Of a stretch of DNA of 64,000 nt, positions 27,283-59,357 are shown in pieces (the first letter of the stretch is position 1; each line of letters opens with the position of its first letter). The translations under genes and the position numbers were made by a program. The DNA lies in the NCBI RefSeq assembly GCF_001723175.1, contig NC_064650.1, forward strand, positions 5,704,001 through 5,768,000, read 5' to 3'. The DNA is from Penicillium oxalicum (lineage: Eukaryota > Ascomycota > Eurotiomycetes > Eurotiales > Aspergillaceae). Under the pieces are notes generated by a model that saw nothing but the letters and a program-made list of their open reading frames with translations, ran no database searches and had not been told where the DNA came from.

Positions 27283-28353
27283 TGAAGTCGGTGCGATGAG
27301 GAGGGGAGCATGAAAGGCGAAGATGAAGGTGGGAGAGACGGCCGATCAGCCGCAGTAAGCGTGAAGAGCATGGAGGGTGGGAAGACTGGGGTCTTTTTTT
27401 TTTTGGCAGACACTTGCCCCCACCAAGAGGCCAGCAGTACGGGAAATTGTACAAACGTCAGAGCTGAATCAAACCTCAATTTGTAAGCCAAGAAGTACGT
27501 AGTTTGTCTCTTCCGTTGATCACGGCCGTTTGGCCAGTAAGCGAGTAATGTGCTGTTCAGAGAGCTCTGGCGTGGGCGACCTCGCGCGACCTCAGAGCCA
27601 GGAGTCCAGCACTCATCTCGCTTCCTGTTTGTCTCCAGTGAGAACCCTCTGCACGTGGAGGGGAAGGGAATCAAAGACACCCGGAGTCCCACTGTCTTTA
27701 GAAGTGGGCTTAGGCGGTACAGTAGAACGCACGAATGGGGGAAGCTGGGTGAAGAGATGAGAAGTGGCTGGACGAGGCAATTCGTCCGATGATCTTTCTA
27801 ATCGACCATGTGACTGCCGAAGGCCCAACCCACCGAAAGACCACACAGATGTAGACGCTAAAGCAAAAGCAAAGCAAAAGTCAAGGCCGTGGATGTGCCA
27901 AGCTGGACCTCAATTCTCGGCGAAACAAGTAGAGCCAATCATTCTCAGCCCCAGCCTCAGCTGAAGTCAGTGTGCAAAAGTACGTTGGGATATTTGACGG
28001 TTCATTTTGCCCAAGCTGAGATGACAGGGCTGGTGCTTGCGCCTTGGCTAAGATCTGGCTGGATGGAGTGGGCAGCACCCACTTCTTCCTCTCCCCGTCA
28101 TCTTGATTGCCGGGAGGCTAACGTGTATCATTCTAGATCAAAGCGCATTGCTCCCACGGATACTCACAGAGCCAGAAATGCGGGGCCTTCTGGCTTCATC
28201 TTAAGCCTAGATTGAGTCCTGTGTGTTGTCTGTCCAACATTCATCCGGAGTGGTATCGATGAACCCCACCTAAACGGACAATCAGACTCGAAAGTCATTT
28301 AAGCTCTCTGGGTCCTCACGGGAGGCGTGGGGCTTTTGGCTGTGTCGGACAAG
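27283..28353. other. Divergent promoter region
   Basis: Between the minus-strand membrane protein and the plus-strand HET-like gene. Frames on the minus strand (to 144 codons at 27258-27692) run through this region but overlap the start of the known gene and show no motif. No gene seen. Confidence 0.5.
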
Positions 28354-30060
28354 ATGAAGGATGCGGAGCGTCAAGCACAATCAACTTCAGAGTCAACCCG
28401 ACAGCACATCAAAGCTGTTCTTATCCAGAACTGGGTGGGATCTAAGCGAGCTCTCCTCGCGTCTCTGAACGAATTTCGCTACTGGAAGACGGAGCAGGTA
28501 TCTGATCTCTTCCGACTACTCCCTCCGACAGGCGCGGCCCATGGAGAACGAAAGCTCTACCCTCTCGGTCCGGTATTTCGACCCCCGCCAGATGGGATGA
28601 GACGATGGATCGAGCTCGGCGGCAAGATTCTGATGTTGGCTGCCATCGATGGGCTTGTCCTGCTCTTTTCACCTTTTTTTCTCCTCGCTTCCAAGGAAGA
28701 GCGAGCAAAGGCTACCAGCGGGTTGTCGACCTTACACACCGAACTGGTTTCAAGTTCGTTATTTATCAAGGCCCCGTTGTCGATGATAGAGAAGGCTGGA
28801 AAGACCCAACGGGCGCTGTGCGTCAACAAGAGCGGTCGATTCCGGTTGATGAGCAGTGGATACGCAGCAATCTCCCACGTGTGGATGGAGACGATGGGTT
28901 ATGAATATCAAAATGTGAAGGCGAATCAGGATGATCGAGGGCTTAACCGTCACCACTTTCAGCGCATCATGGCACAAGTAGAGAAATCAGGCGTCGAGTG
29001 GGTGTGGTTTGACCTTCTCAGCATTCCAAAGGGTACTTGCGACACCACCAAGCGAATCAAAACCATGATCGTCAACAGCCTGCAGAAAGTGTATCGAAAT
29101 GCCGACATGGTCGTCGTCTTGGATGCGCTCACCTTGCAGCTGAATTCGGAAGACCCGCTGATTGCCGCATCGATTCTTTCATGCGGGGCCTGGCTGTCGC
29201 GAGTCTGGACATATCAGGAAGCAAAACTCGCTCGCCAGGTGAAAATCATCACGGCCGGGCGACACCCGATCGACTTTCAGGAGATGGTGGTTGCACTTAA
29301 AGTGGCCGAGCAGCAGGATCCTCTACGGTGGCATGAAATACGCCTCACCTTCGACAGACTGCTCCCACACTGGGATTTGGGCGTTTCGCTTCCAGATATT
29401 GCACTCTCATGCACTCATCGGGCAACAGAGAATGATAAAGACTACGCAAAGGCATTCTTTGCGTGTCTGAATCTAACCTGGACCCAGGGCTGGAGCTACG
29501 AGGACGGTATGATGGAGATTCTTCACTCGAGACCGCAGGATGCCACTCGGCTGGCTTTCATGCATGGTCCTCGAGGCCTCCCGGCTCCATTCTCATGGGC
29601 ACCACGATCCCTCGCGCATCTTCAGGGCAAGATCCATGGTGGATTACAGTTCAGGCCAGAGTCCAATGGGCTCCAGGGATATTGCCATACGGCCCGTGTG
29701 TGTAAGTTACTGGGCCATTTTGTATCAGAGTCTTTGCAAGGGGTGGTGTGTAATCTCGTAGTGCTCGACAAAAACCAGAGGGAAGTCCAGATTCAGATCT
29801 CGCTCTATCCCGGACAGCCAGGGCCCGACATAGAAAACTGGATGTCCAGGACCATTCCAGACGGAAAGGCGAGACTGTTGAGCTGCGACCCAATGGTTCA
29901 GTTAGAGTTTTGCCACGTTGCTTTGCTGGTGGAACAGGAGAAAGGGTTGGATGATGAATTCGCTTTTGAGGACCTCGATGCGAGAGGAAGAGTCGTAGGA
30001 AGTGCCGTCATCAATCACGGATCAGTGGATTCGGCTGAAGTTCGATGGTGTTTGCAATGA
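28354..30060 (+). CDS. HET-domain-like protein
   Basis: Single exon, 568 residues, starting at the first ATG in frame (28354). Residues about 175-300 carry the three HET signatures in diverged form: YAAISHVW (usual YxALSYxWG), WVWFDLLSIPKG (usual WIDxxCINQ) and RVWTYQEAKLA (usual RxWTxQE). HET proteins take part in heterokaryon incompatibility, in which contact between genetically different hyphae triggers cell death; many HET-domain paralogues have no assigned role. A hydrophobic stretch at about 95-110 (ILMLAAIDGLVLLFSPFFLL) may be a membrane anchor, unusual for HET proteins. The C-terminal part, about 330-568, is unlike anything I can name. The protein lacks WD or ankyrin repeats and a NACHT domain. 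Confidence 0.75.
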   Translation: MKDAERQAQSTSESTRQHIKAVLIQNWVGSKRALLASLNEFRYWKTEQVSDLFRLLPPTGAAHGERKLYPLGPVFRPPPDGMRRWIELGGKILMLAAIDGLVLLFSPFFLLASKEERAKATSGLSTLHTELVSSSLFIKAPLSMIEKAGKTQRALCVNKSGRFRLMSSGYAAISHVWMETMGYEYQNVKANQDDRGLNRHHFQRIMAQVEKSGVEWVWFDLLSIPKGTCDTTKRIKTMIVNSLQKVYRNADMVVVLDALTLQLNSEDPLIAASILSCGAWLSRVWTYQEAKLARQVKIITAGRHPIDFQEMVVALKVAEQQDPLRWHEIRLTFDRLLPHWDLGVSLPDIALSCTHRATENDKDYAKAFFACLNLTWTQGWSYEDGMMEILHSRPQDATRLAFMHGPRGLPAPFSWAPRSLAHLQGKIHGGLQFRPESNGLQGYCHTARVCKLLGHFVSESLQGVVCNLVVLDKNQREVQIQISLYPGQPGPDIENWMSRTIPDGKARLLSCDPMVQLEFCHVALLVEQEKGLDDEFAFEDLDARGRVVGSAVINHGSVDSAEVRWCLQ

Positions 30061-37478: not shown

Positions 37479-39485
37479 TCAGTAGTCACTCGCCTGCGTC
37501 TCTGTCCGCACCCGCGCATAAGGTCTCTGAGCTTCAAGTTGCTCCCGACTGAACCAGTTACCATGGAATCCATACGGGACCCGTTGCGGCAGCACAATCT
37601 TCGTCACGACACTGGTCATATCTCGCGCATCGATGATCCACAACTCACTCTTCGCGTGATCGCCGGCTTGTCCCTCCGCATCGAGTTGGGACTCGTCAAA
37701 CATCAGGGTTAAGAGGTAGCCGTCATCTTCGGAATGTGCGTCCTCTCGTGGCACGAATTGAGGTTCCTGCGCGTACCAGCCGGGCGGGGCTTGGAAGATT
37801 TTGATCGGATCTTCCGTGTCTCGGCTGGAAAGAACCTCGTCTATGCTTCGATTGTCGACGCAGCCCTCGATTGGCTGGGGTGGCTGTGCCATCCCGCGCT
37901 GGATCAGCGTAAGGACGTCGACTTTGACGAGACAGTCGACTTTCATCGGTTCGCCGGTTTCTGCGCCAAAGATGGCGTCACGCGAGGAGCAGCCGAAGAC
38001 GAAGCGGGCACCGGTGGGTGGGGCGGTGGGAGAAATAGTGGGCATTTCGAGGGGGATCGAGGACAGGGCCCATTGATGGGTGATCATGTTCTGACTGCGG
38101 TCGGAGAGAGAGAAGCGATAATAGTACATTTTGCTGTCGCTCAATTCGGCATTGGTAGGCTCGATAGCGCCCATAGAGTGCAGCATGTTCCCGTTGGTGT
38201 AGCGGCAGGCGACCATGCTGACGGCCTCGGTGGGAGAGCTTTTCGAGTCGGGTAGGATGGATGCCGGCTCATCCCAGGTGGTTGCAGTATGGAAGATGAA
38301 GCATGGATCTGTTTCGAACCAGCGGACCTGTTCAGGATGTCGTCGCGGAAAGATTCCGAATCGTGACGGAGAGTCCCGATCAAAGTGGATGATCGGCCGT
38401 CCACGAAGCATATTGATGGGATCGAGTGTCACCGGGAGATCCATGATCACAGTGTGATTTTGGGAAACTCCAAAGTCGTGCATCAGTTTCGGAATCGAGA
38501 CTCCCGGAACTGGAGCATACAACACCGGAACCAGGGACCTGCCCGAGTCAGACTTGGGAATCAGAGAGTACCACACAAAGGGAGGCAGAAACGACGCTTG
38601 GAACGAGATGAGATCTCCCGTGGTTGGATCAACGTGAGGCTAGATTTGCGCATAGTTAGTGCACAGATTCCCCTATGAATTGATCAGGCTATTACAAAAA
38701 GAGGGCAGGTCACCTACATGCGCCGTCGTCCAATCTCTCAAAAAGCCAAAGGGTCCATTACAGCCAAATGCGTCTTGTTCCTCCGAGTAGGATTTCCCCT
38801 CATTGAGTGCAGAATGTCCGTTAAACCAGCCGATGGTATCCAGACCGGGCAGTTGCACCCTCATCGGGGGACCCGTCTGACATGTAGCCAACGCGCGCTT
38901 GTCATGATAGAGGATCGCCGTGTTCGCAACGCTGATTTTGCGAACAGGGTGTTTATCCGGGCTGATGAACGACCACGCAATCAGTGCCAGAAACCGGCAA
39001 AGTTTGAAGAATGTCGAAATCGTGGATCTGAATGGATGCGCCAAGGTCGCAATGCTGGGTAGAATGGGAGATCGGAGATTTGGCATGGATCTGGCGCCGA
39101 GGTAAAGATCCGTCAAGATGTATCGGTTCACGAAGCAGGGCTCGACTTTTTGGGGTTGGTTCGTGATGCGAAACCAGATGCCACTCAGCATCCCATCTCC
39201 GTCGAACATGTGCACATCCTCGGACAGGTGATTTCCAAAGCTTGGATTACCGCCGTTTCGCACATACTGGCCGCCGTGAAGCTCGGCAGGAATTGTGCCC
39301 GAGAAGGTACATGGCGTGATGGGGAACTGTCGATGAACAGGCGCAAAGTTTCCAGTGAGGCATCTACAGAGAGGTCTGGTTTAGTCCACCTACCCGAGAT
39401 TCAAGCGCTGCCCACGTGCGCCATCTAAAGATAAGAGGACATACCGGTGTCTCGTCGGTGCAAAGGGTTTGCGTGCCTCCGTCAT
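37479..39485 (-). CDS. Carotenoid cleavage dioxygenase (RPE65 family)
   Basis: Exons 39485-39445, 39363-38718 and 38639-37479 (minus) give 615 residues. This family uses a non-haem iron held by four histidines to cleave carotenoid double bases with oxygen, giving apocarotenals. Family motifs in order: NFAPVHRQFPITPC, GGQYVRNGGNP, MFDGDGMLSGIWFR, then the histidine-bearing segments TAHPHVDPTTGDL (about 226-238), LMHDFGVSQNHTVIMDLP, CFIFHTATTWDEP, and near the C-terminus RVPYGFHGNWFS. All four ligand histidines can therefore be placed. Fungal relatives are CarX (beta-carotene to retinal) and CarT/CAO-2 (torulene to apocarotenal); length and the N-terminal block lean to the CarT type, but I cannot separate them without alignment. 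The gene is divergent from desaturase A across a 1.49-kb shared promoter region, so its substrate is probably the product of this cluster. Confidence 0.87.
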
Positions 39486-40972
39486 GATCGGCACTCACTC
39501 TCTCTGTGTATCCTTGTCTCGCGCACACTCATATTCGCGTGAATCACTACCAAAGACGTCGCTGATGTTGACAAGGAAATCATTGAAGTGTCTTGCTTGC
39601 GACCCTCCTCCAGCATCGAGGCACGGTACTCGTGCAAGGGACTGTGACAGGGACGGGGACGGGCTTTGAGACATGCCGAGGAACCAACATCTCCGACGGG
39701 CGGAGCAACTTGACAAGATCGCGGGACGCGATGTGACGTCACAGATCTGAGTAGCTGCGGGGTCTAGACTTCAAGCAAGCTTCCCTTTTTGGCATGCCCT
39801 GCTGTATTGTCAATCCCACAAGATTCTTTTCACTTGTATTGATCAAGTAACTTTACGATACCAGTACATAATACAATACAGTGTTGAAAGTGGATCTCCT
39901 ACGATACATTTCTACTTTCACGTGTCAAAGCGAGTCATGAATGGAACCTGGCGCTTTATCCACTGACGAAAACGTCCTCAAAGGGGGGGGGGGGCGACCT
40001 AACTCGTCTGAGATGAGAATGGATCTCGAAAAAAGGGGAATGAAACAGAATGGGAGAAGGAATCAAGGGCCTGCAATTTTCCCTCCCTCGAGCACGGGCG
40101 TAGTTGGGTCAAGACTCGAAAGTAAGGTGCCTTTACGCGGTTCTGTCGAGGACTGAACTACCCCAAACTTGTTTTTGTTGCTTGTTCCTGGCATTGCGGG
40201 CATTGATCAAGATGTTCAAAAAAGGAAAAGGAAAAAGGAAAAAAGGAAAAAAGAGCAGCTCTGCCCCCAATTAACAATCTAGTATATAACTGTGCACGAG
40301 TCAATCATTATAGCAAAGGCCATGTAGACAGGGAAAAAAAAGGGTCAACAGTCAAATTAAACGATGGGATCCGAGTCATTGGTTTGGACCACTGGGAACT
40401 TCAGCCATCAGATAACAGGCTCGGCACGACCGGCCGACAAGGCGGTGGACTTGCACTGTCGAGTAAGCGATTCATGGAAAAACCAGCCGAGGCGAATTAT
40501 GTAAACTGCGATTCCTGGTCATGAATTAGGTGAAACGACACACAACCCCGGCCAAAGCGGACACTCTTAGTGCTGAAGCGTTGTCGCAAAGATACTGTAG
40601 AATAATAATCTCTGAGACAAATAAAGCATCGAGTTCGCTCGGTCGTTTGCAGGATTCATCCGCAGCGGGCACTGCCAAATCGGGACGTTCTGTATAGGAA
40701 TGGCAAGGGTTTGGTGTACAATACAAGATCGTGTTACGGTACTGCCCGGTATTTCCGAGCCATGTACCATAACAGGTAATCGATTCACATGAGCGAACGA
40801 TCACGCCAATAGCCAGCTACCGCGGTCAAATAATCAGAGGGATCTTGTTTTGATCGGAGAGAGAAAAAAAGGGAAGCATTCGCTGCAGAGTACGCAAGCA
40901 CAGCTCGATATATCGTTGGAGATCTCGGTCAACCTGACAAAGCAGATTCAAAACTGAACCGACACAGTTGCG
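39486..40972. promoter_or_regulatory. Divergent promoter region, dioxygenase / phytoene desaturase A
   Basis: 1.49 kb between the two start codons with no supported gene, so it should hold both promoters and any shared control sites. It includes a 12-base G run (39983-39994) and a purine run of GGAAAA units (about 40220-40255). Light-response or stress elements may exist here, but I identified none with certainty. Confidence 0.45.
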
Positions 40973-42818
40973 ATGGATACAACAAGGAGAAGAAAGAAGG
41001 TGGTTGTTATTGGTGAGTTGGATGACTCGAACAACTACATTTTGGGAGGTTCAAGATCAGGCTCATATTGGCGTGTTCCCCAGGGGCTGGAGTGGGTGGC
41101 ATCGCAACCGCGGCCAGGTTAGCACAGTGTGGACTGGATGTCTCCGTCTACGAGAAGAATGACTTTGTGGGAGGAAAATGTAGCAGTATAATGCAAAACG
41201 GATACGTGAGTTCAATGAGTTGCATTGCCATCGCCGCTGCTAACCTCATGTGCTCAGCGCTTCGATCGTGGCCCGTCTCTCCTGCTCATGACTGAGGTCT
41301 TTGAGGAGACATATCGACACCTGGGGACTTCCATGTCATCAGAAGGCGTCGAGTTGCTCAAGTGTGATCCGAACTGCAACTTCTGGTTTCCCGACGGACA
41401 GTGTTTTACCACATCGACCGATATTGCCCGAATGAAGAACCAACTGGAGAAGCTGGATGGTCAACATGGGTTCCAAAGTTTTCTGTCCTTTCTCGAGGAG
41501 TCGCATCACCACTACCAACAAAGCATCCCGCATGTGCTGAACAAGGACTTTGCCAATTACTTTGCACTCTTGCGACCCGGATTTTTGCGCTACTTATTCA
41601 AACTGCATCCTTTCCACACAGTCTGGCAGCGTGTGTCACATTTCTTCCAGCCTCATCAGTTGCGACAAGTCTTCAGTCTTGCAAGCATGTACCTCGGCAT
41701 GTCGCCATTTGATACACCGGGGACGTACACTCTTCTTCAATACACGGAGCTGACTGCTGGGATATGGTATCCCCGTGGGGGATTTAATCGAGTAAGTTCC
41801 AGGTCGTTGCTGACGCGGTTCCGACTTTTGCATTTTGACTGATCCATCCTTCGTGTAGATCGCGAGAACGCTAGTGGACGTCGGTGAAAGATTGGGTGTC
41901 AAGTATCATCTCTCGCAGCCTGTCAAGAGTGTGTCGATATCATCGGATAAGAAAGCTCGAGGAATCACATTGGACGCGGACGAGATCATTGAAGCCGACG
42001 CAGTCGTGGTGAACGCTGACCTCCTCTATGCCTACGAAGAGCTCTTCCCCTCACACCAGTCCAAGCCTGATGTGACCAGGGAAAAAGAGGATGTATCCTG
42101 CAGCGCCATTACCTTCTACTGGTCCATGTCCCAACGGATCCCACAGCTGGAGTCTCACAACATGTTCGTGGGACAACCGAGTGGGGAGCAATTCCCCGAC
42201 GTGTACTGGAACCGAGATCGTGAAACCATGCCCTCCTTCTACGTCCATGTGCCATCTCGCACCGATCCGTCCGCCGCACCGGAGGGCAAAGATACCGTGA
42301 TGGCACTAGTGCTGGTCGAGAACGTGGATATGTCGAAGACGACGCAAGAGAACCACCTGGACAGCCTCATCGCCGCCACACGCCAGTATGTCCTATCGTC
42401 GATGCAAAGTCGCCTCGGCGTGGATCTCCGCGACTTCATCGAGCATGAGACGCTACATTCACCAACCACTTGGCATCAGATGTTCAACTCGCATCGCGGC
42501 TCGGTGTTTGGACTCAATCACGACTTCTTCAATATTCTCTCTTTCCGGCCCCACACCAAACATGACGTCATTGACGGTGTGTACTTTGTGGGCGCGAGTA
42601 CGCATCCCGGCGCGGGTGTGCCCACCTGCCTGTCGGGCGCAAAAATTACCGCCGAACGGATCTTGCGCGACTTGGACATTCCGATCGCCTGGGAGGGCGA
42701 TGCGATCCGACCTCAGAAGGAAGCGGCCAAAGCCACCGTGGTGGAACCCTCAGGGGCGTGGAAAGGACTTGCGCTCGTGTCTGCGGTACTGGGGATTGTT
42801 GCCGTCTGGCGAGCGTGA
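40973..42818 (+). CDS. Phytoene desaturase A (carotenoid 3,4-didehydrogenase family)
   Basis: Exons 40973-41012, 41084-41205, 41258-41791 and 41859-42818 give 551 residues. An N-terminal FAD-binding Rossmann motif (VVVIGAGVGGIATAARLA) starts near residue 10. Then follow RFDRGPSLLLM, ASMYLGMSPFDTPGTYTLLQY, and the C-terminal family signature YFVGASTHPGAGVPTCLSGAK. A final hydrophobic helix (GLALVSAVLGIVAVW) anchors it in membrane, as in AL-1/CarB enzymes. The family inserts double bonds into phytoene stepwise to give neurosporene, lycopene or 3,4-didehydrolycopene. Its intron pattern is the same as in desaturase B downstream. It has diverged at otherwise conserved positions: GGFNR where B has GGFVK, and GGKCSS where B has GGRCSL. 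It may therefore do a different desaturation step. Divergent from the dioxygenase, in tandem with the synthase/cyclase. Confidence 0.88.
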
Positions 42819-44580
42819 GGAGAGAGGAGAGAGAGACCTTGCTGTGAAGTGGGAGTGGCACCCTGGCAGCCTGGCCCGGTGTCGATGATTTCCTTGTTGA
42901 GAGATGGACAAAAACCACACACCTTGGATGTCGTGGTAGTCATCCCCCATCACTTGTCGCTTTTACCACGTTGAATAGAAGGCAGACCGAATCGAGGGAC
43001 AGGACCTATTGACTTGGCGCGTATGGGACTGATGAGGTATTGGGTCGGTCAGGGTGATGACTTGGTCGACCAGAATCCAAAAGCCGAGAATACGCCCGCA
43101 TTCGGGTTTGCAGCCAATTCGCTCGAGGCCGCAGTGTTGCGGTACGGTCGCCAGTCGCAACCGCAGTCACCGACTCACCAGTCTCATGTATATGCCTAGA
43201 GCCAACAATTGGACTCGGCTCACCACCTCACCACTCGGTGGATCACGACGCCTGTCTGGACCTGCTGTGGTACTTGGTCCAGGGACCAGGCTCAGCGCTA
43301 GACATGCAGCTCAAATGTTAAACCTGCTTTGCGCCAGCAGTGGAGCCGGTAAGGTTCGATCGATCGGTGTAAGACTGCCCCAGTCGGTATTGTCAATACA
43401 TAAGCTTAAATATTGCGATCAGAGATCCGGCGTCGTCTCCGCACACTCCAGCGTCGAGACGGGAGCCTGTCAGGCCCTCGCCATTTGAAATTATTTGCCG
43501 CATATGCAGTTGTTCCCACCGTGGGCTGGCTTTTCTGCTAGAGAGATATATACACCCTGAGAAAGTAGTGCGCCAACATGGAAAGCGTGGGTGGTACGTC
43601 AGTGGTAGCGAGAGCTTGCCCATGCACCTGCACCTGCACTGCTCTGGATGAGAGCTACGAAGAAGAATGGAGCTAGCACCCGAAGCCGGATGAGTGTACC
43701 GTAGCGCTGCAGCACTACTCCGCCAGGGAGGACCAGCTCCACTGGAGACGACCGATGCACGATTCAGTTCGGGAGTAAAGTACAGTCTGCTGTATACTTA
43801 CATACGATCCCTGGAATTTGATACTGTAATGCGTAATCATTCTGGCTTTACATTACATGAACAACCTGTACTGCCAGTGTGGGCATATTATTATTATTGA
43901 GAGCCATTTGCGCCAGTCCTCCCCTCCCCGAGGACAAAATCCACCAGCGACAAGCTCCAAAGGATGGCCGAGGGGCCATGGAAGAAAAAGAGCGAACACA
44001 ACGGAGAGACAATTGATTCTGCTCGGATGTTTGACGGAATTATTCGGACTGTATTGGCTTCCGAAAATGCGACAGCTGCGTAGCTTTTCTTTTCTTTTCT
44101 TTTTTCATTAATGTTTTTTTCCCTTTCACTTATTCTTCGAAGTTCTTACCCTTCTTGGTCCAACCTGGGGGTCCTCTTAGTATTGTAATAAACTGTCCGT
44201 GGTAAGTGTGAATACTGGTTAGACTCTCTGGGTAAGATGGTTACCTATACATCATGTAATATGAATTATTCCTTTTTATCTTTTGGTCTTTTTATTTTGG
44301 TTTAATCCACTCTCGCCTGGGACTCGTACAGGGCTTTAGCATCCCTATCCCGCAAGAAACCGGACGAGCAAGTTTCGGTCCAGCCTGACGATAAGAAGTC
44401 GTAGGTAGTCAGCAATTCACGGAGCCTGGGGGATCCTCTTTTTTTCAACAAAGACAAAGGTCGGAACGAAGACCGTCGACTACCTTCCAGTTTCCTCTGG
44501 CTCGCATTCTTAACTTTGACATGCTACTTGCACCTTGAGCTCACCGGCACTATTCAACGGGTTCGACAGTGTGATTCACG
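42819..44580. other. Intergenic region, desaturase A / synthase-cyclase
   Basis: 1.76 kb, no gene supported. Frames to 144 codons (43054-43488) have no motif or splice sites. Contains the promoter of the synthase/cyclase; a T-rich tract lies around 44085-44125. Confidence 0.5.
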
Positions 44581-46917
44581 ATGGGTTATGATTATTGGAT
44601 GGTGTGAGTCGTCTCTTCCAACGGACAAGCTTGCTGAAGCGATCACGACAGCGTCCAAGTCTTGGTCAAACCCAAATTCTCTCGATTTCCCATGAAACTG
44701 ATCGTGTCCTCCGTTTCTGCAGGCATTTGACGTGGACAATTCCCCCTGCGGCGTTGTTCACGGTGGCATATTGGCCCTTTTTTACACGACTAGAGATTTG
44801 GAAGATTGTCATTTTGATCAATGTATGTCGATGAGCTTGCGCAGTTGGTTGTTTTTTTTTTTCTTTTTTCTTTCCTTTTCTCAGTTTCCCACTCCTCTCT
44901 CTGTCTCTTTTTATTTTTGGCGGCATTCAATGTTATGCGATCCGAGCTTTGGCTGCTCGCAATCTTCACTTTCATCCCTGCGGTGCGGAGTCGCGACCCT
45001 TGACTGACTCGCGATTCAGGTTGCTGTCTATGCCACGATACCGTGGGATTCATTCTTGATCCGCAATCGGATCTGGACATATCCAGCCGATGCGGTGGTG
45101 GGATGGACTCTATTCGACATCCCCATTGAGGAGCTGTTTTTCTTCGTGATTCAGACGTACTGCACCAGTCTGCTGTACACGATTCTCACCAAGCACTTGG
45201 TCCTTCCGTCCTTTTTGCTGGACCGCTCCAAGCCCTGGGCGAAGAATGTGGGCTCCGCCGCCATCATTGCCGGAATCGGCTTCGGTGCTCTCTGTATCAT
45301 GACGAAGAGTAGTCTGACCTATATGGGCCTGATTTTGAGTTGGGCGTTGTCGGTCATCTTGTTCCAATGGTGAGAGAATCCGAAAGAAAAAATGGGCAAG
45401 TACGGAGGGGCGATAATCACAGACACACTGACACGTCATCGATTCTAGGTCTCTCTGCGGGAGCTTCTTACTTTCTTTCCCCAAGAAACAGATTTTCATG
45501 TCCATTTTGATCCCAACAGTCTATCTCTGGATGGTCGATCGCCTGTCCTTGCAGCGTGGAACGTGGGTGATTGAAAAGGGCACCAAATTAGACATTCAAT
45601 TCTGGGGGTTCCTGGACATCGAGTAAGTGTTGCGCCCCCGAAACCGTTCCCGGTATTGTCAAATACCCGCGAACCTTCCCCCCTACCAAAATACTGACCC
45701 CCCGAACAGAGAAGCTACCTTCTTTTTACTGAGCAATGTGATGGTGGTCCTGGGCATGGTCACCATGGACCATGCCATCGCTCTGGCCCAGTATGATGTG
45801 GTGACCTCCGACTCCCCTGGTCGGTCACTGCCGTCTCTGGGCAAGATGGCCTGGTCGTACATGGCTCAGCGGCGGAAGCCCCTCGACGAGGGTTTTTTAG
45901 ACGGGCTTTGCGCCGCAGTGACGGAGCTGTCGCGCAAAAGCCAGAGTATGTATCTCGGTAGCGCCATGTTCCAAGATGGACTCCGAGTGGATCTGATCTT
46001 TTTGTGAGTGATGAGTTTGAACGGCGGAGACCGCCCGATGAGAACAACCAGGGATCCGCTGCTAATCCTCTTGACCCAGGTATTCTTTCTGTCGTGTGAT
46101 TGACGACTTGGTCGATGAGGCACCCTCGCGGGAAAAAGCCCAGGAGAGCATCAAGGAGGCTTCTCAAGTGTTGCATTGGCGCTTCTCCGAAAAGAGCCCG
46201 AAGAAGCCTCTGTACGATTATCTTCAAGCGGATATGGATCGCAAACAAGCTCTCAAGGCGTCACCCTTGCTGCACTCCATCGCTTTGCTGCCGGCCTCGC
46301 GCCTGAGCCTCGGCCCGCTGCTCGAACTCCTGTCGGGATTCGTCATGGATCTAGGATTCTCCTTTGAAAAGCAGGAGTACCCCATCGAGACCGAGGAGGA
46401 TCTGGAGGTCTACGCACAGCGTGTGGCCGGCACCGTTGCCGCGGGACTCTTGGAATTGGTGTTCAGCCATACCGACGTGCAATACAGTCCGGACAAGCAG
46501 GAGGAGATCATCCAGGCCGGTCAGCAGATGGGCAAGGCTCTCCAATATGTCAACATTGCGCGTGATATCAAACGTGATGCCGCGATCAAGCGTGTCTACA
46601 TCCCCACCGTCTGGCTGAAGACGAAAAACCTCACCCCCACTGACGTGGTGACCAACCCCGATAACCCTGCCCTGGCCACCTTTGAGGACCGGATGCTCCT
46701 CAAAGCCGACCACGCGTACCAGATGAGCGTCCAGGCGATCGATCAGCTCCCCAAGGACGTGCGCGGCCCCATCAAGACCACCATCGAGAGCTACATGATG
46801 ATCGGCCAGATGGTCCGTAAAGCGCGACGGGAGTCGACCAAAATCGAGGGCAAGCTCAAGGTGCCGTTGTGGCGGAGGTTGAAGTTGGCTTGGTCGGCCA
46901 TGTACGTTAATCACTAG
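44581..46917 (+). CDS. carRA: Bifunctional lycopene cyclase/phytoene synthase
   Basis: Exons 44581-44603, 44723-44822, 45020-45369, 45449-45622, 45710-46003 and 46080-46917 give 592 residues, close to the usual about 600 of AL-2/CarRA proteins. The N-terminal half is the membrane-bound heterodimer-type lycopene cyclase: two repeats with IPWDSFLIRNRIWTYP and FDIPIEELFFFVIQT in the first, and TKLDIQFWGFLDIEEATFFLLSN in the second. The C-terminal half is phytoene synthase: YSFCRVIDDLVDEAPS carries the first Asp-rich motif (DDLVDE) and ARDIKRDAAIKRVYIP the second (DIKRD), which bind Mg-diphosphate of two geranylgeranyl diphosphates. It thus makes phytoene and cyclises its desaturated product. It is the committed enzyme of the cluster, located between the two desaturases. 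The very short first exon (23 nt) begins MGYDYWMV; the join restores the first membrane helix. Confidence 0.92.
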
Positions 46918-48523
46918 GCGGGGTGGAATTCGTTGGAGAAGCTTTCCTTTTGTTTTGTTTTATTTCTCTTCTAGTCTATGATTGTGAGCGGTTTTTGTTA
47001 TGGGACCGAATCGTTTCTTCCCCATTTATGTTTCTCTTCCGTTTTTTTTTGATGTGTTTCTCCGCCGAGGCATTTGGCAGCGTCTGTCGATGAGGTTTCC
47101 ACACCTGAGTGGTTTACATGCCTGTACTACCAGCATGAATTTTGAATAATTGCACTACATCACCTCTCTGGGTGATTGATGGATGAAATCATCGTCACTT
47201 TTTCCCTAAGCGGAACAAATCCTGAGGGGATCATGCCGAATCTCCTGGTGCCACTTGACCGTCATGTTGACTCCACCATCAGACTGGGATCAGTAAACAG
47301 GTCACGCATTAAATGGGATTAAAATAAATAAAATATCCACAATCATAGAATGTACCAGAACTCTACGCGAGTCCATTGATAAATTTAAACAATGCACACC
47401 CCACACCACCGTCCCCCCCCTCAAGACCCAGGCGATCGGGTACGATGGGACCAACGATCGGGGAAAGGGAACAGGTTCAACATCGGAATAACCAACGGAG
47501 CTCAGATGCTCTACACGGACTCCAACGCCGACGGAAAGGAGGCGCACTGCTCAGCCCACTCCGATCGGCGTGATGCTCTTCCGATTGACGTGTGTCGGGA
47601 GTGTCAAAGTGGGGGGGGGGGGGAAGAGAAAGGAAGGATCAGGGAACGGGATGACGTGAATCAAGGCATTCGGCTCACGGGCAGCCTCCTCCATTGCGAT
47701 CTGCCCCATGAAAGTGTCTGACGAGAAAGTGAATCGAGACCTAAGCTTCGAGCATCAGACGAAGAGAGAAGAAAGAAGAGGAGGCGCCCGGCGCATGGAT
47801 GAGGGGGAAGGACCTTGGACTCTTCCTCCACCAGCTGCAAGGGCCAAAGACCCAAAAAGGAATGGGGGAGTCCACTCGGCTCTCACAGAGAAAAAGACAT
47901 GGAAAAAAAAACCACACCCATCTTGGTACCGATGTGAGATAAGTTTTTTTTTTGTGGACTCTTGATTCCTGCCCTTCTGATTAGTGCCAAACCTGAGATC
48001 TTATCCCGAACGGGGCTCAATTGGGCTTCTGTCAGCCCGTGGCAGGTGAAGGGTTGACTTGCAAGGAAGCATCAACGAGAGTGGAGAGGGCCGATGCTTT
48101 CTCACTTCCGCGATCGATGGACTCGGCAAGTCGGCGGAGTGGAACTGGGACGCCGCGGGTCGGGTACCTTACTGTATTGATCTGGGTATGGTCAGGTATG
48201 GTAATACTGGAGATCGAATCGGTTTTCACATGCCGTACGCAGGTCGTAACGGTCTGATCAGATCCGGGACTTGCGGGCCAGGCCCAGCAAGAGGAAACGA
48301 GGGCTTGACACGACACCGGTTTGTTATGATAGATAACTCCAGGCCCACGGGATTGAAAAAGAGACAGCTGGGAATTAAAAAAAAGGAGAAGAACACGTTT
48401 GATCTTTCTCATTCTACCGTCTCTTCCATTGAACCTCTGCAGCATCCCAGAGAGCCTTTCTTAGTGAAGTGGACAGACTCGGTCCTTACGAAAGCTATCT
48501 CGTCACATAGTCTTGCTGCACAA
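46918..48523. other. Intergenic region, synthase-cyclase / desaturase B
   Basis: 1.6 kb, no gene supported. A 13-base G run lies at 47611-47623. An ATG frame of 109 codons (47392-47721) crosses that G run and has no recognisable domain. The right end is the promoter of desaturase B. Confidence 0.5.
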
Positions 48524-50463
48524 ATGGCTCCCCCGAGTGCGATTGTCGTGGGTACGTATAATGTACTGCAGGATCACGCGATCTTGAAAGAAATGACCTA
48601 GAGAGAAGAGCACCGCGACTGATGATGACTACAGGTGCTGGAGCTGGAGGTATCGCCACCGCCGCCCGTCTTGCCAAAGCCGGGTACAAGGTCACGGTTG
48701 TGGAAAAGAATTCCTTCCTCGGCGGCCGGTGTTCACTAGTGCATCACGACGAATTTGTGAGTTTTTGCTTCACCCACTCTGGCTTGTGACTGGCAAAACT
48801 GTCGGTATCCTTCGAGGCCTGAAGAGAACCAGCGACCCCCAAATTAGCGACTGTTTTCTAAATCTGGTCTGTAGCGATTTGATCAAGGGCCGTCGCTCTT
48901 GTTGATGCCCGAATGTTTCCAGCAAACATTCGAGGAACTGGGCACCACCCCGGAAAAGGAGAATGTCAAGCTCTTGACATGCGACCCCAACTATCGCATT
49001 TGGTTTTCCGATGGAGACCACCTGGAGATGTCGACCGATATTGCCAAAATGAAGCCGCAAATTGAGCGCCTGGAGGGTGCCAATGGCCTCGAGGGGGTGT
49101 TTGGGTTCTTGAAGGAGTCTGGCGCTCACTACGACTTGGCCATGGAGCATGTTCTCTGCAAAGACTTTCCTAACATTTTCGCCATGCTTCGTCCGGGCCT
49201 CGTGAAATCACTTCTCGCTCTGCACCCCTTTGAGAGCATGTTCAGCCGCGTAAAGCGGTATTTCAAGTCGGACAAGCTTCGGAGAGCGTTCACATTTGCC
49301 AGCATGTACTTGGGAATGAACCCGTTCGAGGCCCCCGGAACGTATTCGCTTCTGCAGTACACGGAGCTGGCACACGGTATTCTCTACCCTGAGGGTGGTT
49401 TTGTCAAGGTAAGCTGTCTTTCTTTTGTTTTGATTTTTTTGGTCTTTCAATGAAGGAAGATCCCCGATCTTCACGTCACATTCTGGTGGGCTTCCGGCTA
49501 AAAAAAAAACGACTGCAGGTTCTTGAAGCGATCGCCCGGGTTGGAGAACGGCTCGGGGTGACTTTCCGCTTGAACACGCCAGTTGCCTCGATCCTTCAGG
49601 CGGCTGATGGCTCCGCCCGTGGAGTGCGCCTCACCTCGGGAGAGGAGCTCCTGGCCGACGTGGTGGTCATCAACGCCGATCTGGTGTACGCCTACAACAA
49701 CCTCCTGCCACAGACCAGCTATGCCAAGAGCTTGACCAAGCGCAAAGCTTCCTGCAGCAGTATCTCTTTCTTCTGGTCCTTTGACCGAGTCATCGACGAA
49801 CTCTCCGTCCACAACATTTTCCTGGCCGAGGAGTACAAGGAGAGCTTCGATTCCATCTTCCACCGCCACCAACTCCCCAAAGATCCATCATTCTACGTCA
49901 ACGTCCCCAGTCGCATTGATCCCACGGCAGCCCCCACGGGGAAGGACTCCGCGGTGGTGCTGGTCCCCGTGGGTCACATCGACGACGACCCTTCCAACCC
50001 GCAGGACTGGGATGTGCTCGTTGACCGTGCTCGTGAAGCCGCCTTCAAGACGATCGAGGCTCGCACGGGAGCCAAGGGTCTCCGCGAGAGCATCATTCGG
50101 GAAACCGTCGAGACCCCCACCAGCTGGAAGGCCAAATTCAACCTGGACCGTGGCGCCATCTTAGGTCTCTCCCACTCCTTCTTCAACGTCTTGAGCTTCC
50201 GCCCGCAGAACCGACACTCGGACATCAAGGGCTTGTACTTTGTGGGTGCAAGCACGCATCCCGGTGCGGGTGTGCCCGTCGCCCTGATGAGTGCCAAGGT
50301 CACCACCGACCTGATTCAGAAGGATGCTCGCAAGCCCACCGGCGGACGATCCGCCTGGATGGTCTGGTGGTTCGTCGTACCTCTGTTGCTGGCCGTTTTT
50401 TCGTTCTCCAAGTACGGCTCTGTGGCCTGGTCAAGGGTTCTGCCCCTGGGTGCAAAGCACTAA
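48524..50463 (+). CDS. carB: Phytoene desaturase B
   Basis: Exons 48524-48551, 48635-48756, 48875-49408 and 49519-50463 give 542 residues. The FAD-binding motif is at the very start (AIVVGAGAGGIATAARLA); then RFDQGPSLLLMPE, SMYLGMNPFEAPGTYSLLQY, LYPEGGF followed by RVGERLGVTFRLNTPV, and the C-terminal YFVGASTHPGAGVPVALMSAK. A C-terminal hydrophobic segment (WWFVVPLLLAVFSF) is the membrane anchor. This copy keeps the more standard AL-1/CarB sequence at the sites where copy A differs, so I infer that it is the main phytoene desaturase; the symbol is given on that basis. Exons 2 and 3 have exactly the same lengths (122 and 534 nt) and phases as in copy A, showing common descent. Same direction as the synthase/cyclase, 1.6 kb after it. 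Confidence 0.9.
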
Positions 50464-52234: not shown

Positions 52235-53378
52235 ATGCAGCACGCTGTCGCCCATCTCATCGGGCGGAGCGCCGATAGAGCTTCCCTTTCAGTGCAGAAA
52301 CGGGCAGGTCTCTCTACAACTCGTCTCTCCGAAGCGCCGTTAGGAGCTTTCATCGTGCTGGTTTTGTCCCTCGCTCTCTTGTTTCTGGCCTTTGCAATAT
52401 GGGTAGTGAGTCACCCACTCATTGTGAATGGAGGATTGTCACGACAAAAAAACCTGGGTGTACCCGGAAGGATCCCTGCTGACTCTCTTGACTCTGGTCC
52501 AGGTGGACTATACATATGGCCAGGTCGTGGCTACTCTGGCGGCGGTGGAGAATTCCAATCCGGACATCTACATTTGCATTGACGATCACTCCAGCGATCA
52601 GGATCCAACCAAGCCATCTGTTCCAAGTGGAATCGAGGATGCGACTCTCTCGCACCCCTCTCAGCCGGTCACGACAGGGTTCCGGAGTACCATCAAACAC
52701 CTTCGCGCCCAGGCGGGCTTTTGGTCTCGCCTACGTGGATTGTCTGCATATCTTTGCTTCGTGGTCCCGCAAGTTTATGTTATGATCCTGTTGTCATCGT
52801 CCAAGGGCACGACACTCCTGGTCGTGACTTGTCTAAACGTTCTCCTTGCCCCTTTGCATCTGGCCTGGGTGCATATCGTCATCTCTCAGCCCTCGCCTCG
52901 GCGCTTCTACCAGCGCATCCCCCATATTCGCACCTGTGCCAACATTGCTCCAGCGATTGCGCTGAGAGATGGATTGAGTACCGCGGTGTATTTCGCTACG
53001 GCGGCATTGACGCATAACCTGCGTTGGAAGGCTTTGGATGACCTGAGTCCCAGTATCCTTAGCCTGGGATTGCCTGCATTGATGTCTGCGGTGGTTCGCG
53101 TCCCGACTCATGCGATCTTTGTCCGGGTTGCTGCATCGATGCTGCCCGAGGAGGACGAGACTATCGTGCCCTTTGATCGTTCCTTTGGTGGAAAAATCCA
53201 GCCCCGGGTCATGGGTGAAGGCAGTCATCTTGGCCTGCTAGATGCGTGGCAAACTTTTGACCGGCCTGCACGACTTCGATATGGCTGGGTGATCATCAAG
53301 ACCTTTTTCATTGAGGTGTTCTTGGGCGTCTTCCTGCTGATCACGTGGTACCCGTTCATGCTGCTGGCGCTGTTGTAA
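52235..53378 (+). CDS. Multi-pass membrane protein of unknown family
   Basis: Exons 52235-52405 and 52503-53378 join in phase 0 and give 348 residues. One hydrophobic helix lies near 38-58 (AFIVLVLSLALLFLAFAIWVV); further ones lie near 140-160 (LSAYLCFVVPQVYVMILL), 165-185 (TTLLVVTCLNVLLAPLHLAWV) and at the C-terminus (FFIEVFLGVFLLITWYPFMLLALL), with weaker ones between. So four to six helices. The part between them holds a conserved-looking stretch VPTHAIFVRVAASMLPEEDETIVPFDRSFGGK. The layout recalls carrier-like proteins but no carrier signature is present, and I do not assign a function. It lies between the carotenoid cluster and a housekeeping ubiquitin-conjugating enzyme, so a link to the cluster is not indicated. 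Confidence 0.75.
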
Positions 53379-55420: not shown

Positions 55421-56611
55421 TCAAGCACTCTGGGGTCGATTCTTGTATCCCGTGCGCATCGACGGGATGAAGAGTCCAGGGTGGACCAAGGTAAAAGCGG
55501 TGCAAGCAAGGGCAATCATCCTATGAGAGTGACAAGTTTAGATTAGTAAGAAGGTCCAAACTGACGAAGCTTCTTGATTTTTCCTCTTTTTGAGAATGGG
55601 GGAAGGTTGTGAGAAGCACTTACATTCCGTCGAGGACGAGGAACTCATTCTCCTTTTGCATGAGAGGGCTACCCCAGCCACCTGCCATTTCGGGGATACT
55701 AGATAGGTTGAAGTATGTTAGCAAAATACTGATTGAACTGTGGCAAGCCTCGTCTTCTTTTCCTTCTTCTTCTTCTTCTTCTTCTTCTTCTTCTTCTTTT
55801 TCTTCTTCTTCTTCTTCCTTCCTTCACCTCGAGCTAGTGGAGAAGAAACCCAGGAAAAAAGAACAAGAAAAAGGGGTTCAGAATGAGATCCTTACCGGTA
55901 GATACACCGAATCAAGATGGTGAAATAGGCAAAGACCTCGGCAATGATCACGAGCTTCATGCGTGAAGGAGTGACGGAGGGAGACGCATCCTCCAGCGTC
56001 TTCTCTCCGGCCAGACCGTTCCCACTCCGGTGCAAGGTCCAGAAGTAATGGGCCCCGAGCAGGCCACAGATGGCCATGGTGGCCACCTGGAAGGCAATAC
56101 CCGCGATGATGATATTGTCGCCCACCTTGAGGAGGAACTGGTTGGTCTTACCCGCAGCGGCCGCGACACCACCACCCGCGGCTTGCAGGACCAACGAGCC
56201 GACGTCGCAACTGATGAAGATCCATGTGAACAGCTTGGGCTTCAATTTGGAGTGCTCTGGCCCCAGATTCAAGACGATATGCTTGAGGGTGAGGTAGACG
56301 CCCGCCGCGACGAAGGTGGGCGCGAGGACCAGACACACGATTTGGAGCTTGAATGCGCTCTCATCCCACGGATTGGCGTGCATCAGCACTCGACCGACGT
56401 AACCCGCCATTTCCATCGCGGCGCCCGCCCCGAGAGCGATCATGAAGGTCCAGGTGCGAAAGTAGATTCCAAACCCGATTTGGAAGAGGGCCAACACGCC
56501 AAAATAGGCTGTGAAGAAGATGTTGGCACCCAAGTTGGGATAGTAGCCATAGGTGGTGGCTTGAACGGGACAGTATGGCCCAACCTCGGTGCAGTCCGCG
56601 AAGCCCGGCAT
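55421..56611 (-). CDS. RTA1-family membrane protein
   Basis: Exons 56611-55896, 55698-55624 and 55520-55421 (minus) give 296 residues. RTA1 (lipid-translocating exporter) proteins have seven transmembrane helices and in yeast confer resistance to sterol-targeting or lipophilic compounds and affect lipid asymmetry. Signatures: YGYYPNLGANIFFTAYFG near the N-terminus, AAMEMAGYVGRVLM, LKPKLFTWIFISCDVGSLVLQAAGGG and, after two introns, IPEMAGGWGSPLM plus NEFLVLDGMMIALA. The start used is MPGFADC at 56611, which gives the usual short extracellular N-terminus; an in-frame upstream ATG at 56695 would add 28 residues of Pro/Leu-rich sequence and cannot be excluded. The first intron (55895-55699) carries a long GAA repeat. 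Confidence 0.87.
55763..55816. repeat. GAA/TTC triplet repeat in an intron
   Basis: On the plus strand 12 CTT units, a TTT interruption and 5 more CTT units; on the RTA1 coding strand this reads as GAA repeats within intron 1. Polypurine-polypyrimidine mirror sequence such as this can form triplex DNA. Confidence 0.9.
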
Positions 56612-59357
56612 GGTGGAAAGATATGGAGGTGTCAACTCAGGAAGACCACCTTTTGGGGGGGAGGGGGGGAAAGGCGTTACGGAAAGAAAGGTCAAGGGCA
56701 GTGTGGGCGAAGCGGGTGGTATTCAAGGTGGGATGTTGTTGGAAGTCACTGTTGTAAGTGAGTGTTGACTAAGAGAGCTGTGTAGTGAATGACGCTCGCT
56801 GAGAGAATGGGAAATCAACACTGGTTCTTTTTCCGCCGCCTGGAATTATTAAAAAAAAGATGACAGGGGAAATGCGATGCGCTAGTGGACACTGAAGTGA
56901 AAGAGGTAGTTGGGCGACTCCACCAGCGCCACTTTGTTCGATCAAGATGTCGTCGCAGGGGACCGATCGATTATGATTTCTTGCTTCTTACTTGTTTTCC
57001 ACTTTTTTCAGTGTCACCGGAGTCGCACCCACCACGAAAGATATGAAGACTGCTGTTCCCAAGTTGGAAAGCCGGCGATAGCAGGGAGGCTGACGACAGG
57101 GAATCGTTATTTTATAAGATGAATCTCGGCCACCCTGCACCTGGCTCAGATGCAGTCTCAGCTTAGCATGCACGCGCCTTGTAGCGAGCATTGGCACTGT
57201 ATCTTGGAAAGTGAGACGGCCCCACGGAGCAGCGTTGACCACGTTGGGCAGGTCGGTTCCAAGACCGACTCGGCGGCTCTTTGCTGACCGAGACGCGTGC
57301 ATGGGGAGGAGGTAAGAGGGGGTTCAGAGAGGTCAAGAAAGGTGTCTCTGTTGAGCCACGCAAATCCATATCGAAATTCTCCTGATCCTATCTTTGTCCA
57401 TCGCATGGGAGAATTCCAGATGCACAGAAACCTCATGCATCGTCCAACAGGCGTCGAATCTTCTATCGAAACGCTTCGATGCAACAGAGCCGTCGGGCTG
57501 GCCTCGTCGGTACCCGGTACACTGGCTGGCTCGGAGATTTGTGGAGGACATGCAGTACTCTCTACTTTGTCACCGCTGATTGGCCGGCCCATCCATGTCA
57601 GATTGTCACTGCCATCGTTCTCGTTCTCGTTTTCGCGTTAAGCCCCATGTTTATCCCCTTTGGGAAGTGGTCCTTTACCTCTCTTGGGCATTTTGATTGT
57701 TATCACCTGTACACTTATTGTCCTTTTACCCACTCTTGGCCGCAAGCGAGCTCCTAGCGAGCTCCGCTTGAGGGTCTTGGTGATGGAGGTCGGGCCTTGG
57801 GACGTTTCCACTTTCTCCACGATCCGTCCACAGTTACCTGCGCTTGGACGTCTCTATTTCCATGATATGATTGTTCTAACACAAGTCATCGGCCGGCTGT
57901 CCATGGCGGTCGGAGATCCTTTCTTATCGCCGAACCCACTATCCAATCAAAATGATACTCATCGTTTGAATACTCTACAGGCCCACCTGGACACTGTTGT
58001 CGTAGGTACATATGAGCGCAACAAGTATACACGAAGAAGAACGTGGTGCATATCAACCACCGAGCTTCTCGACACGCGTGGTACCACGTTCGACTGCTAT
58101 GAGAATGCTACGATGGTCGCCAGCTCGACGAAACTCGTTTGTATCTACAGTAAAAGGTTATGCGCTTGTTATTATTGTTAACCGTTCTTCATGTCTCCAT
58201 GGTACCTCACGATCCTTCGTCATACCCGACTCGAGTCAAAAGTTCCAATGCTGCTGATGCCCATCTGGATATTGACCAGGAGTTGACCACGATCGTATTC
58301 GCATACGGACTCGCTTTCTGCTCCCGCAGGATTGCGGTCCCTGGGTAGATGTGGCAGTGACATGCCCGGCCTGGATTCTATTGATATCGTGGGATTGCCC
58401 CGTACAGTAACGGCAGTCCTTGTTCTCATGAGGGAATCGAGACAGATTCATTGAAACGGCTCCCCTCAAAGTCTCCATCGCATCACAAGGATGGACTCAA
58501 ACAAGAACCGACTGGTCTGCTGAGCCTGGATCAGACCAAATCACCTTTCTCTACTCAGCTTTAAATAACGAACCCCACGCTTGTGTGCATACTCATGATG
58601 ACCCGAGTCCTACAAAGTTTTCCATTGTGGCCCTTGACAATTACGAATATGAAGAGGTTTTTATGTTATGCTCTTGTCACTCCCTCAGTTTCCGTCTAGA
58701 CTCGTAAAGGGAGAGGGGGTGGGATTTGCGCAGAACTTGATTCAAAAGAGATCATCATCCCCCACCGTCTCTTGCTGTTGATCTTCTGTTCATCATCCTC
58801 TCTTTGATTCTTTCCCCCTCTCCATTTCCTTCACTTCTCGCTCTCTCTTTTCCGCTCTTCCTCTCTGGCCTTTTCACCTGTTTCGGGTTAATCTCTCTTC
58901 TCTCCACCCCCGCATATTGTTCGCACTGGGCCTGTCCGTCGGACTCGGAGATAAAAAAAACCTCATCTCACAGATGACAGACCGAACACTGCCCCCCTCG
59001 TCTCCAGGACCTCCTCACCTTCCATGCGTTGAGTGACTCCTGCAGGTCCCCTCCCCTTCCACTCCCCAATGAGTCTTCCTGATGAAGTCTCCATGTTGCC
59101 CCAGCCGTGAGAGGAGGCAACGCTTACTCCCCTTCTGGCCCGAACCCGGTCGCATTTTGCCTCTCTAGTCTCGCTTGGACTTTTTTTCGCCATCGCGCGT
59201 CTATCTCCGTTGGGCCATCGGGGTCTGCTGCATCTCAGATCAACCATGCCACGTGACTCTTTCGTTCGCGGCCTCTTTTCCTCGCGCGACGTCGCCCTCC
59301 AGTCGACTTCCGTCTCGGACGACAAGACAGGAATGTCGATGGTTTGAACCACTCGTT
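56612..59357. other. Long divergent intergenic region, RTA1 / Zn2Cys6
   Basis: 2.75 kb without a secure gene. A minus-strand frame at 57592-57158 (144 codons, ATG start) has no motif. On the plus strand two frames carry hydrophobic helices: IVTAIVLVLVFALSPMF (frame ending 57757) and LLGILIVITCTLIVLLPTL (frame 57660-58181). They would be one protein only if a frameshift lay near 57680. Both are recorded as an open question, not as genes. Confidence 0.4.

What the first reader, a model, noticed from the sequence alone, without database searches (positions are those of the whole stretch)
37479..50463. Carotenoid cluster with two phytoene desaturases flanking the synthase/cyclase, plus a divergent cleavage dioxygenase
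Seen: a complete set of four genes with intact motifs (dioxygenase histidines, two FAD-binding desaturases, cyclase PIEEL and synthase DDLVDE/DIKRD). Known: the characterised ascomycete pathways (Neurospora al-1/al-2, Fusarium carB/carRA/carX) use a single phytoene desaturase for all steps. Inference: the second desaturase may split the desaturation range (for example lycopene versus torulene precursor), or act on a cyclised intermediate, giving a product not made by single-desaturase fungi, which the dioxygenase then cleaves. This is the most likely undescribed system in the window.
Basis: partly seen in the sequence, partly recalled or inferred. Interest (0 to 1): 0.75.

Follow-up and report, generated by a model that had tools for sequence, protein, structure and literature searches.

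The report
Carotenoid cluster with two desaturases
A Penicillium mould carries, next to its normal carotenoid-making genes, a second and very different copy of the enzyme that adds double bonds to carotenoids, and what that copy makes is not known.

Summary
Window 37479-50463 holds four intact spliced genes: a carotenoid cleavage dioxygenase (A), a CrtI-type desaturase (B, PDS1), a phytoene synthase/lycopene cyclase (C, CarRA) and a second CrtI-type desaturase (D, PDS2). The organism is Penicillium oxalicum or close kin: B matches PDE_08072 at 549 of 551 residues. A genome search with PDS2 finds CrtI-type matches only in B and D. D is the ordinary CarB type. B is 47.5% identical to it, shares all three intron positions and phases, and belongs to a fast-evolving clade seen here only in Penicillium. 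The arrangement fits the Fusarium car cluster with PDS1 added between the carX-like gene and carRA. Most likely PDS2 does the main phytoene desaturation and PDS1 is a specialised late-step desaturase whose product feeds the adjoining dioxygenase, as pea aphids split fungal-derived desaturases. Activity and product are untested. New variant of a known kind.

The parts
37479..39485 (-). Gene A: carX-like carotenoid cleavage dioxygenase, 615 aa, exons 39445-39485, 38718-39363, 37479-38639
   Evidence: Spliced model; PF03055 355.2 bits; P0184 83% identical; keeps the six His that are invariant in 108 of 108 other sequences
39486..40972 (.). 1487-bp intergenic region between the divergently transcribed A and B; possible shared promoter (inferred)
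   Evidence: Gene models, length; no excess of GATC-type words in this region
40973..42818 (+). Gene B: PDS1, divergent CrtI-type desaturase, 551 aa, exons 40973-41012, 41084-41205, 41258-41791, 41859-42818
   Evidence: Spliced model; 549 of 551 residues identical to PDE_08072; TIGR02734 405.1 bits; CrtI fold of P0001, which differs from B at two residues
44581..46917 (+). Gene C: CarRA, bifunctional lycopene cyclase/phytoene synthase, 592 aa, 6 exons
   Evidence: Spliced model; TIGR03462 117.4 bits; PF00494 146.7 bits; only lycopene cyclase domain match found in the genome (1 match)
48524..50463 (+). Gene D: PDS2, canonical CarB/AL-1-type phytoene desaturase, 542 aa, exons 48524-48551, 48635-48756, 48875-49408, 49519-50463
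   Evidence: Spliced model; 96% to P0121 of P. ucsense, which scores TIGR02734 455.7 bits; inside the Eurotiales CarB-type clade

Best explanation
This is an ascomycete car cluster with an added, functionally diverged desaturase. C makes phytoene and cyclises ends; D (PDS2) is the CarB-type enzyme that carries phytoene to lycopene or beyond. B (PDS1) is an old paralogue that kept the FAD-binding motif and fold but changed residues in and around the predicted substrate pocket. It most likely works as a carotene desaturase on a late intermediate (for example lycopene to 3,4-didehydrolycopene, or gamma-carotene to torulene), so that the balance of beta-carotene and torulene-type carotenoids is set by two enzymes instead of one. 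A, which faces B across 1.5 kb, then cleaves one of these to an apocarotenoid. Shown: genes, intactness, family membership, genome copy number, divergence, presence in relatives and equal contig lengths there. Inferred: catalytic activity, substrate split, co-regulation and cleavage product.
Against: No expression, pigment or enzyme data. PDS1 evolves faster than PDS2 in 10 of 10 species pairs, which relaxed constraint would also give. Three of 8 PDS1 rows lack a core stretch (P0003, P0008, P0009), and P0003's H362 lies in an aberrant stretch; annotation error and decay cannot be told apart without DNA. Two of 10 other rows checked lack a stretch too (P0127, P0132). P. ucsense and P. chermesinum have gene A and PDS2 proteins listed but no PDS1 among the 120 rows. 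Of the mutated pair in CrtI, the H323 equivalent is invariant in both types and the H322 equivalent is conserved in neither, so it does not itself separate the two enzymes. The proposed catalytic D149 is D in 2 of 53 canonical rows and no PDS1 row. No family model points to a specific late-step activity. The altered loop near 341-350 is low-confidence in the model (block pLDDT 58). The PDS1 branch is long and one search warned of long-branch joins.
Confidence: 0.5

Rival explanations
1. PDS1 is redundant: it does the same desaturations as PDS2 and serves dosage or a different condition (for example sclerotia, light or stress).
For: Same family, fold and intron structure; several pocket and flavin-site positions agree with canonical enzymes (for example F152, R160, N284, H332, Y360).
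Against: At conserved columns it is more than twice as divergent as any of 53 canonical rows, two basidiomycetes included, and changes are shared within its clade (C94, H187, L384, S443, F449 in 8 of 8; in none of 53 canonical rows).
Confidence: 0.2
2. PDS1 is no longer a desaturase but another CrtI-family oxidoreductase (end-group oxidase, ketolase or isomerase, or an enzyme acting on an apocarotenoid made by gene A).
For: Clade-specific changes include a predicted pocket residue (H362) and the strongly conserved segment after H332; it faces the dioxygenase gene. CrtI-related genes used in end-group oxidation exist (crtNb, crtNc in Bacillus; passage of PMC8879039).
Against: Isomerase and ketolase model scores of six PDS1 rows overlap those of six canonical rows and do not exceed their maximum.
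Confidence: 0.15
3. PDS1 is under relaxed constraint: weakly active, inactive, or on its way to loss.
For: Fast evolution; three of 8 rows lack a core stretch; no PDS1 listed for P. ucsense and P. chermesinum; third-position G+C of A and B is 0.63 against 0.72 in C and D, which may mean lower expression.
Against: Intact spliced reading frame here, 549 of 551 residues kept against strain 114-2, presence in several species with equal contig lengths, and 154 of 195 conserved columns (79%) kept against about 47% identity overall.
Confidence: 0.15

Closest known systems
Fusarium fujikuroi car cluster (carX, carRA, carB, carO)
   Same: carX transcribed divergently from carRA, carB closely linked to carRA (passages of PMC5715946)
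   Different: A second desaturase gene lies between the carX-like gene and carRA; no opsin in the cluster: the two opsin-family matches are on another contig, one about 3.3 kb from a second CCD
Neurospora AL-1 / Fusarium CarB five-step desaturases
   Same: PDS2 belongs to the CarB-type canonical clade
   Different: One enzyme is reported to do all five steps there (passages of PMC5715946); here two exist, and PDS1 departs from the canonical conserved columns. No AL-1 sequence was compared directly
Pea aphid ApCrtI2 and ApCrtI4 (Tor)
   Same: Two working fungal-type desaturase paralogues in one genome; Tor forms 3,4-didehydrolycopene (passages of PMC10127341)
   Different: The aphid genes are of fungal origin and sit in an animal; the split of roles is shown there, not here
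Aspergillus tubingensis FF14 CrtI-type genes
   Same: Three CrtI-type genes in a Eurotialean, one next to CarRA by gene number (passages of PMC13340296)
   Different: The other two are on other contigs and have no role assigned; the A. tubingensis proteins in my set (P0128, P0174) do not group with PDS1
Fusarium CarX retinal-forming dioxygenase
   Same: Gene A has the RPE65 domain, the conserved His set and carX's place in the cluster
   Different: A is 51% identical to this genome's second CCD, the one near an opsin gene; which of them makes retinal is unknown. No CarX sequence was compared directly

Membership tests
CrtI-type phytoene desaturase family (TIGR02734) | Whole-protein score above the curated cut-off of 238.1 bits | tested here: met
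   PDS1 405.1; P0121, 96% identical to PDS2, 455.7
CrtI-type phytoene desaturase family (TIGR02734) | CrtI-like fold | tested here: met
CrtI-type phytoene desaturase family (TIGR02734) | Desaturates phytoene | not testable with these tools
   No enzyme assay
Canonical ascomycete CarB/AL-1 desaturase: gene D (PDS2) | Groups with ascomycete CarB-type enzymes and keeps their conserved columns | tested here: met
   Trees; P0121, standing for D, is not among the 20 most deviating rows shown
Canonical ascomycete CarB/AL-1 desaturase: gene B (PDS1) | Keeps the columns conserved in canonical enzymes | tested here: not met
   41 of 195 columns differ; the most in any of 53 canonical rows is 18 of 196
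Canonical ascomycete CarB/AL-1 desaturase: gene B (PDS1) | Branches inside the ascomycete CarB clade | tested here: inconclusive
   Outside it in the mixture-model tree (87/82); union with the Eurotiales-type clade not rejected (p 0.396); union with Penicillium PDS2 alone rejected (p 0.0008)
CarX-type carotenoid cleavage dioxygenase (gene A) | RPE65 domain with conserved His | tested here: met
   PF03055 355.2 bits; six of six His invariant in 108 relatives kept; that four His bind the iron is recalled, not tested
CarX-type carotenoid cleavage dioxygenase (gene A) | Cleaves beta-carotene to retinal | not testable with these tools
   No assay
CarRA/AL-2 bifunctional enzyme (gene C) | Lycopene cyclase domain fused to phytoene synthase domain | tested here: met
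   TIGR03462 117.4 bits and PF00494 146.7 bits, both over cut-off
Fusarium-type car cluster | Opsin gene linked to carRA/carB/carX | tested here: not met
   Both PF01036 matches are on contig C2; the window is on C1

The most novel reading that the evidence does not exclude
PDS1 and dioxygenase A form a Penicillium-specific two-enzyme module, facing each other across one intergenic region, that turns a carotenoid made by CarRA/PDS2 into an apocarotenoid not known from single-desaturase fungi, while retinal for the opsins is made by the separate CCD/opsin locus on contig C2.
Probability: 0.25. Interest if true: 0.7.

Novelty: new variant of a known kind. Interest (0 to 1): 0.5.

Why it matters
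Fungal carotenoid pathways are usually described with one desaturase plus one bifunctional synthase/cyclase. A conserved second desaturase inside the cluster would show that fungi too can split desaturation between two enzymes, as aphids do with fungal-derived genes, and it makes the question of what sets the number of desaturation steps testable with two natural paralogues from one organism. It may also lead to an unrecorded Penicillium apocarotenoid.

Tried and rejected
Recent Penicillium-only duplication of PDS2: rejected (AU p 0.0008; the groups were named after the tree was seen). Bacterial origin of PDS1: not tested by a tree with bacterial enzymes; the three shared introns speak against it. 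Affinity of PDS1 to bacterial 3,4-desaturases (TIGR02733): PDS1 100.4 bits against 60.1 for P0121 looked like a lead. Five further PDS1 rows score 61-95 and five canonical rows 62-88. Only PDS1 of P. oxalicum and P. diatomitis exceed the canonical maximum, so I dropped it as a clade property. Promoter words: the A-B region shows no excess (CGATC 5 against 4.7 expected by length, GATCGA 0 against 1.3); the C-D region has CGATC 10 against 5.1 and CGATCG 4 against 0.85; no shuffle test was made; the longest word shared by two promoters is a 12-mer, between A and B. No light element is claimed. Structure: CrtI relatives rank high for both models and do not tell them apart. Rooting of the two CCDs of this genome: gene A's clade, the C2 gene with its P. 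ucsense relative, and the other fungi meet at one point, and no outgroup was at hand. Neighbouring ORFs: 9 scanned, none a further carotenoid gene by Pfam. Literature: the listings (20 of 115 shown; 17 of 17; 30 of 106; 12 of 17; 4 of 4; none found; 15 of 28) show no paper on a two-desaturase cluster in Penicillium; most subscription journals are not held. dN/dS was not possible: no DNA of relatives was held.

Full report
What is there. Four genes were modelled by splicing at GT..AG sites. Gene A (39485..37479, minus, 615 aa) is a carotenoid oxygenase (PF03055, 355.2 bits over the genomic stretch). Gene B (40973..42818, 551 aa) and gene D (48524..50463, 542 aa) are CrtI-type desaturases. Gene C (44581..46917, 592 aa) carries lycopene cyclase (TIGR03462, 117.4 bits) and phytoene synthase (PF00494, 146.7 bits) domains. 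All four models are open from start to stop. The intergenic distances are 1487 bp (A-B, divergent), 1762 bp (B-C) and 1606 bp (C-D).

Organism. B matches PDE_08072 of Penicillium oxalicum 114-2 at 549 of 551 residues, so the window is P. oxalicum or very close kin. The genome held is 30.77 Mb in 17 contigs. A search with PDS2 gives six matched stretches, all in B and D. The lycopene cyclase domain matches only C. There are two carotenoid oxygenase matches, A and one on contig C2, and two opsin-family matches, both on C2. The C2 oxygenase (610 aa, model) is 51% identical to A and lies about 3.3 kb from one opsin match.

The two desaturases. B and D are 47.5% identical over 484 residues, and all three introns sit at the same positions and phases: they are paralogues from an intron-bearing ancestor. 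D groups with Penicillium and Aspergillus CarB-type enzymes. The first nine rows (120 of 1813 matches listed) are eight Penicillium proteins and P0005, a 314-aa metagenomic fragment identical to B over its length. Seven of the eight were put in a tree with both window genes and 62 other proteins; they form one clade with B (100/100), and the nearest other row, a basidiomycete, joins only weakly (66/93). The eighth, P0001, is B's own database copy. In a mixture-model tree (37 rows; P0008 and P0009, which lack about 60 core residues each, were left out) the PDS1 clade lies outside the other ascomycete enzymes on a long branch (1.18), with modest support (87/82). Holding it with Penicillium PDS2 is rejected (p 0.0008); holding it with the whole Eurotiales-type clade is not (p 0.396). 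Under this model the duplication looks older than the Penicillium PDS2 radiation; its exact age is open, and long-branch pull is a risk (warns of it).

Conservation and divergence. At the columns that at least 90% of 53 canonical rows share, the 8 PDS1 rows differ at 20.5-23.6% (41 of 195 in P0001), while no canonical row, two basidiomycetes included, exceeds 9.2% (18 of 196, P0174). PDS1 identity is lower than PDS2 identity in all 10 pairs among five species (for oxalicum PDS2 the P. ucsense protein P0121 stood in, and some rows are incomplete). Five changed residues (C94, H187, L384, S443, F449) are present in 8 of 8 PDS1 rows and in none of 53 others. H362 is H in 8 of 8 and N in 51 of 53 (the exceptions are P0149 and P0103); in P0003 it lies in an aberrant stretch. 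By the alignment it corresponds to H353 of Pantoea CrtI, listed among the pocket residues in PMC3382138 (passages). That paper also reports that an H322A/H323A mutant lost the two extra desaturations; the H323 equivalent is invariant in both types here and the H322 equivalent is conserved in neither. The strongly conserved segment after H332 is degenerate in PDS1, but the model is uncertain there (block pLDDT 58). R152 of CrtI is kept (R160 in 7 of 7 rows with a letter, 46 of 53 canonical rows); D149 is D in 2 of 53 canonical rows and in no PDS1 row. Both proteins model as the CrtI fold with a C-terminal helix.

Linkage in relatives. No DNA of other fungi was held, so I used the longest-contig lengths in the listings. 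They are identical for PDS1 and PDS2 in P. verhagenii (1797460), P. frequentans/glabrum (4095106) and P. odoratum (3247549); for PDS1 and gene A's clade in P. verhagenii and P. longicatenatum (2037444); and for PDS2 and gene A's clade in P. verhagenii and P. chermesinum (5100085). In P. longicatenatum PDS2 shows another length (1822983). P. chermesinum and P. ucsense have gene A and PDS2 proteins listed but no PDS1 row; clustering at 90% identity could hide one. This is linkage by contig, not adjacency, and a listed length belongs to a cluster of sequences. Three of 8 PDS1 rows and two of 10 other rows checked lack a run of eight or more core residues.

The dioxygenase. Gene A keeps all six His invariant in 108 relatives. 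A, the C2 oxygenase and the other sequences are about equally far apart (49-51%) and their clades meet at one point of the tree (50 of the 120 listed proteins used). In Fusarium carX is transcribed divergently from carRA, with carB and carO linked (passages of PMC5715946). The window fits that arrangement with PDS1 placed between the carX-like gene and carRA, and without the opsin. Locus tags (for example BP5796_07541 for the desaturase and BP5796_07543 for the dioxygenase of Coleophoma) suggest close linkage of one desaturase and one dioxygenase in other ascomycetes. A is thus most simply the in-place gene, and PDS1 the addition.

Interpretation. The ordinary core (C, D) should make beta-carotene or torulene-type carotenoids. 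PDS1 is intact, present in several species and altered in clade-specific ways, so a changed substrate or step range is the most probable reading. Pea aphids show that two fungal-type paralogues can split these steps (ApCrtI2 and ApCrtI4/Tor, passages of PMC10127341). Redundancy, new chemistry and relaxed constraint remain open. A and B share a lower third-position G+C (0.63 against 0.72 in C and D) and a divergent arrangement, which fits joint regulation, but no promoter motif supports it: the A-B region shows no excess of GATC-type words. Family models do not name an activity: isomerase and ketolase scores overlap those of canonical enzymes, and a raised CrtD score is limited to two of six PDS1 rows.

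Novelty. Reviews seen in passages describe one desaturase gene (PMC8879039; PMC5715946 for Fusarium). One 2026 paper lists three CrtI-type genes in Aspergillus tubingensis without assigning roles (passages of PMC13340296). No paper on this Penicillium arrangement appeared in the listings, within the limits of an open-licence library. I rate it a new variant of a known kind.

Noticed in passing
G000:C2:4637891-4639696 (L032) and C2:4643101-4643820 (L033, ORF 1081-1452 and on): A second carotenoid oxygenase gene (610 aa model) about 3.3 kb from an opsin-family match, unlinked from the car cluster; a likely retinal/opsin pair. The opsin gene itself was not modelled.
   Followed up: partly
P0083, P0090, P0129, P0130, P0136, P0141: CarB-type enzymes of Hypocreales (Ilyonectria, Cladobotryum, Ophiocordyceps, Escovopsis) fall inside the Eurotiales-type clade (100/100), unlike the Fusarium rows; possible horizontal transfer.
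   Followed up: no
P0174 and P0128 (A. tubingensis); P0144, P0127 and P0009 (P. frequentans/glabrum); More than one CrtI-type protein per species name in other Eurotiales; P0174 and P0144 lie outside the PDS1 clade and away from P0128 and P0127.
   Followed up: no
window 55892-56722 (-), 59598-60797 (+), 61459-62739 (-): RTA1-like protein, an ORF with Fungal_trans_2 (and a sub-threshold Zn_clus match), and an NAD_binding_4 reductase downstream of the cluster; relation to it unknown.
   Followed up: no
window 52428-53378 (+): 316-aa ORF with no Pfam match at E 0.001.
   Followed up: no
window 28303-30060 (+): ORF with a HET (heterokaryon incompatibility) domain.
   Followed up: no
window 25330-25401 (+): tRNA gene by Rfam.
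   Followed up: no
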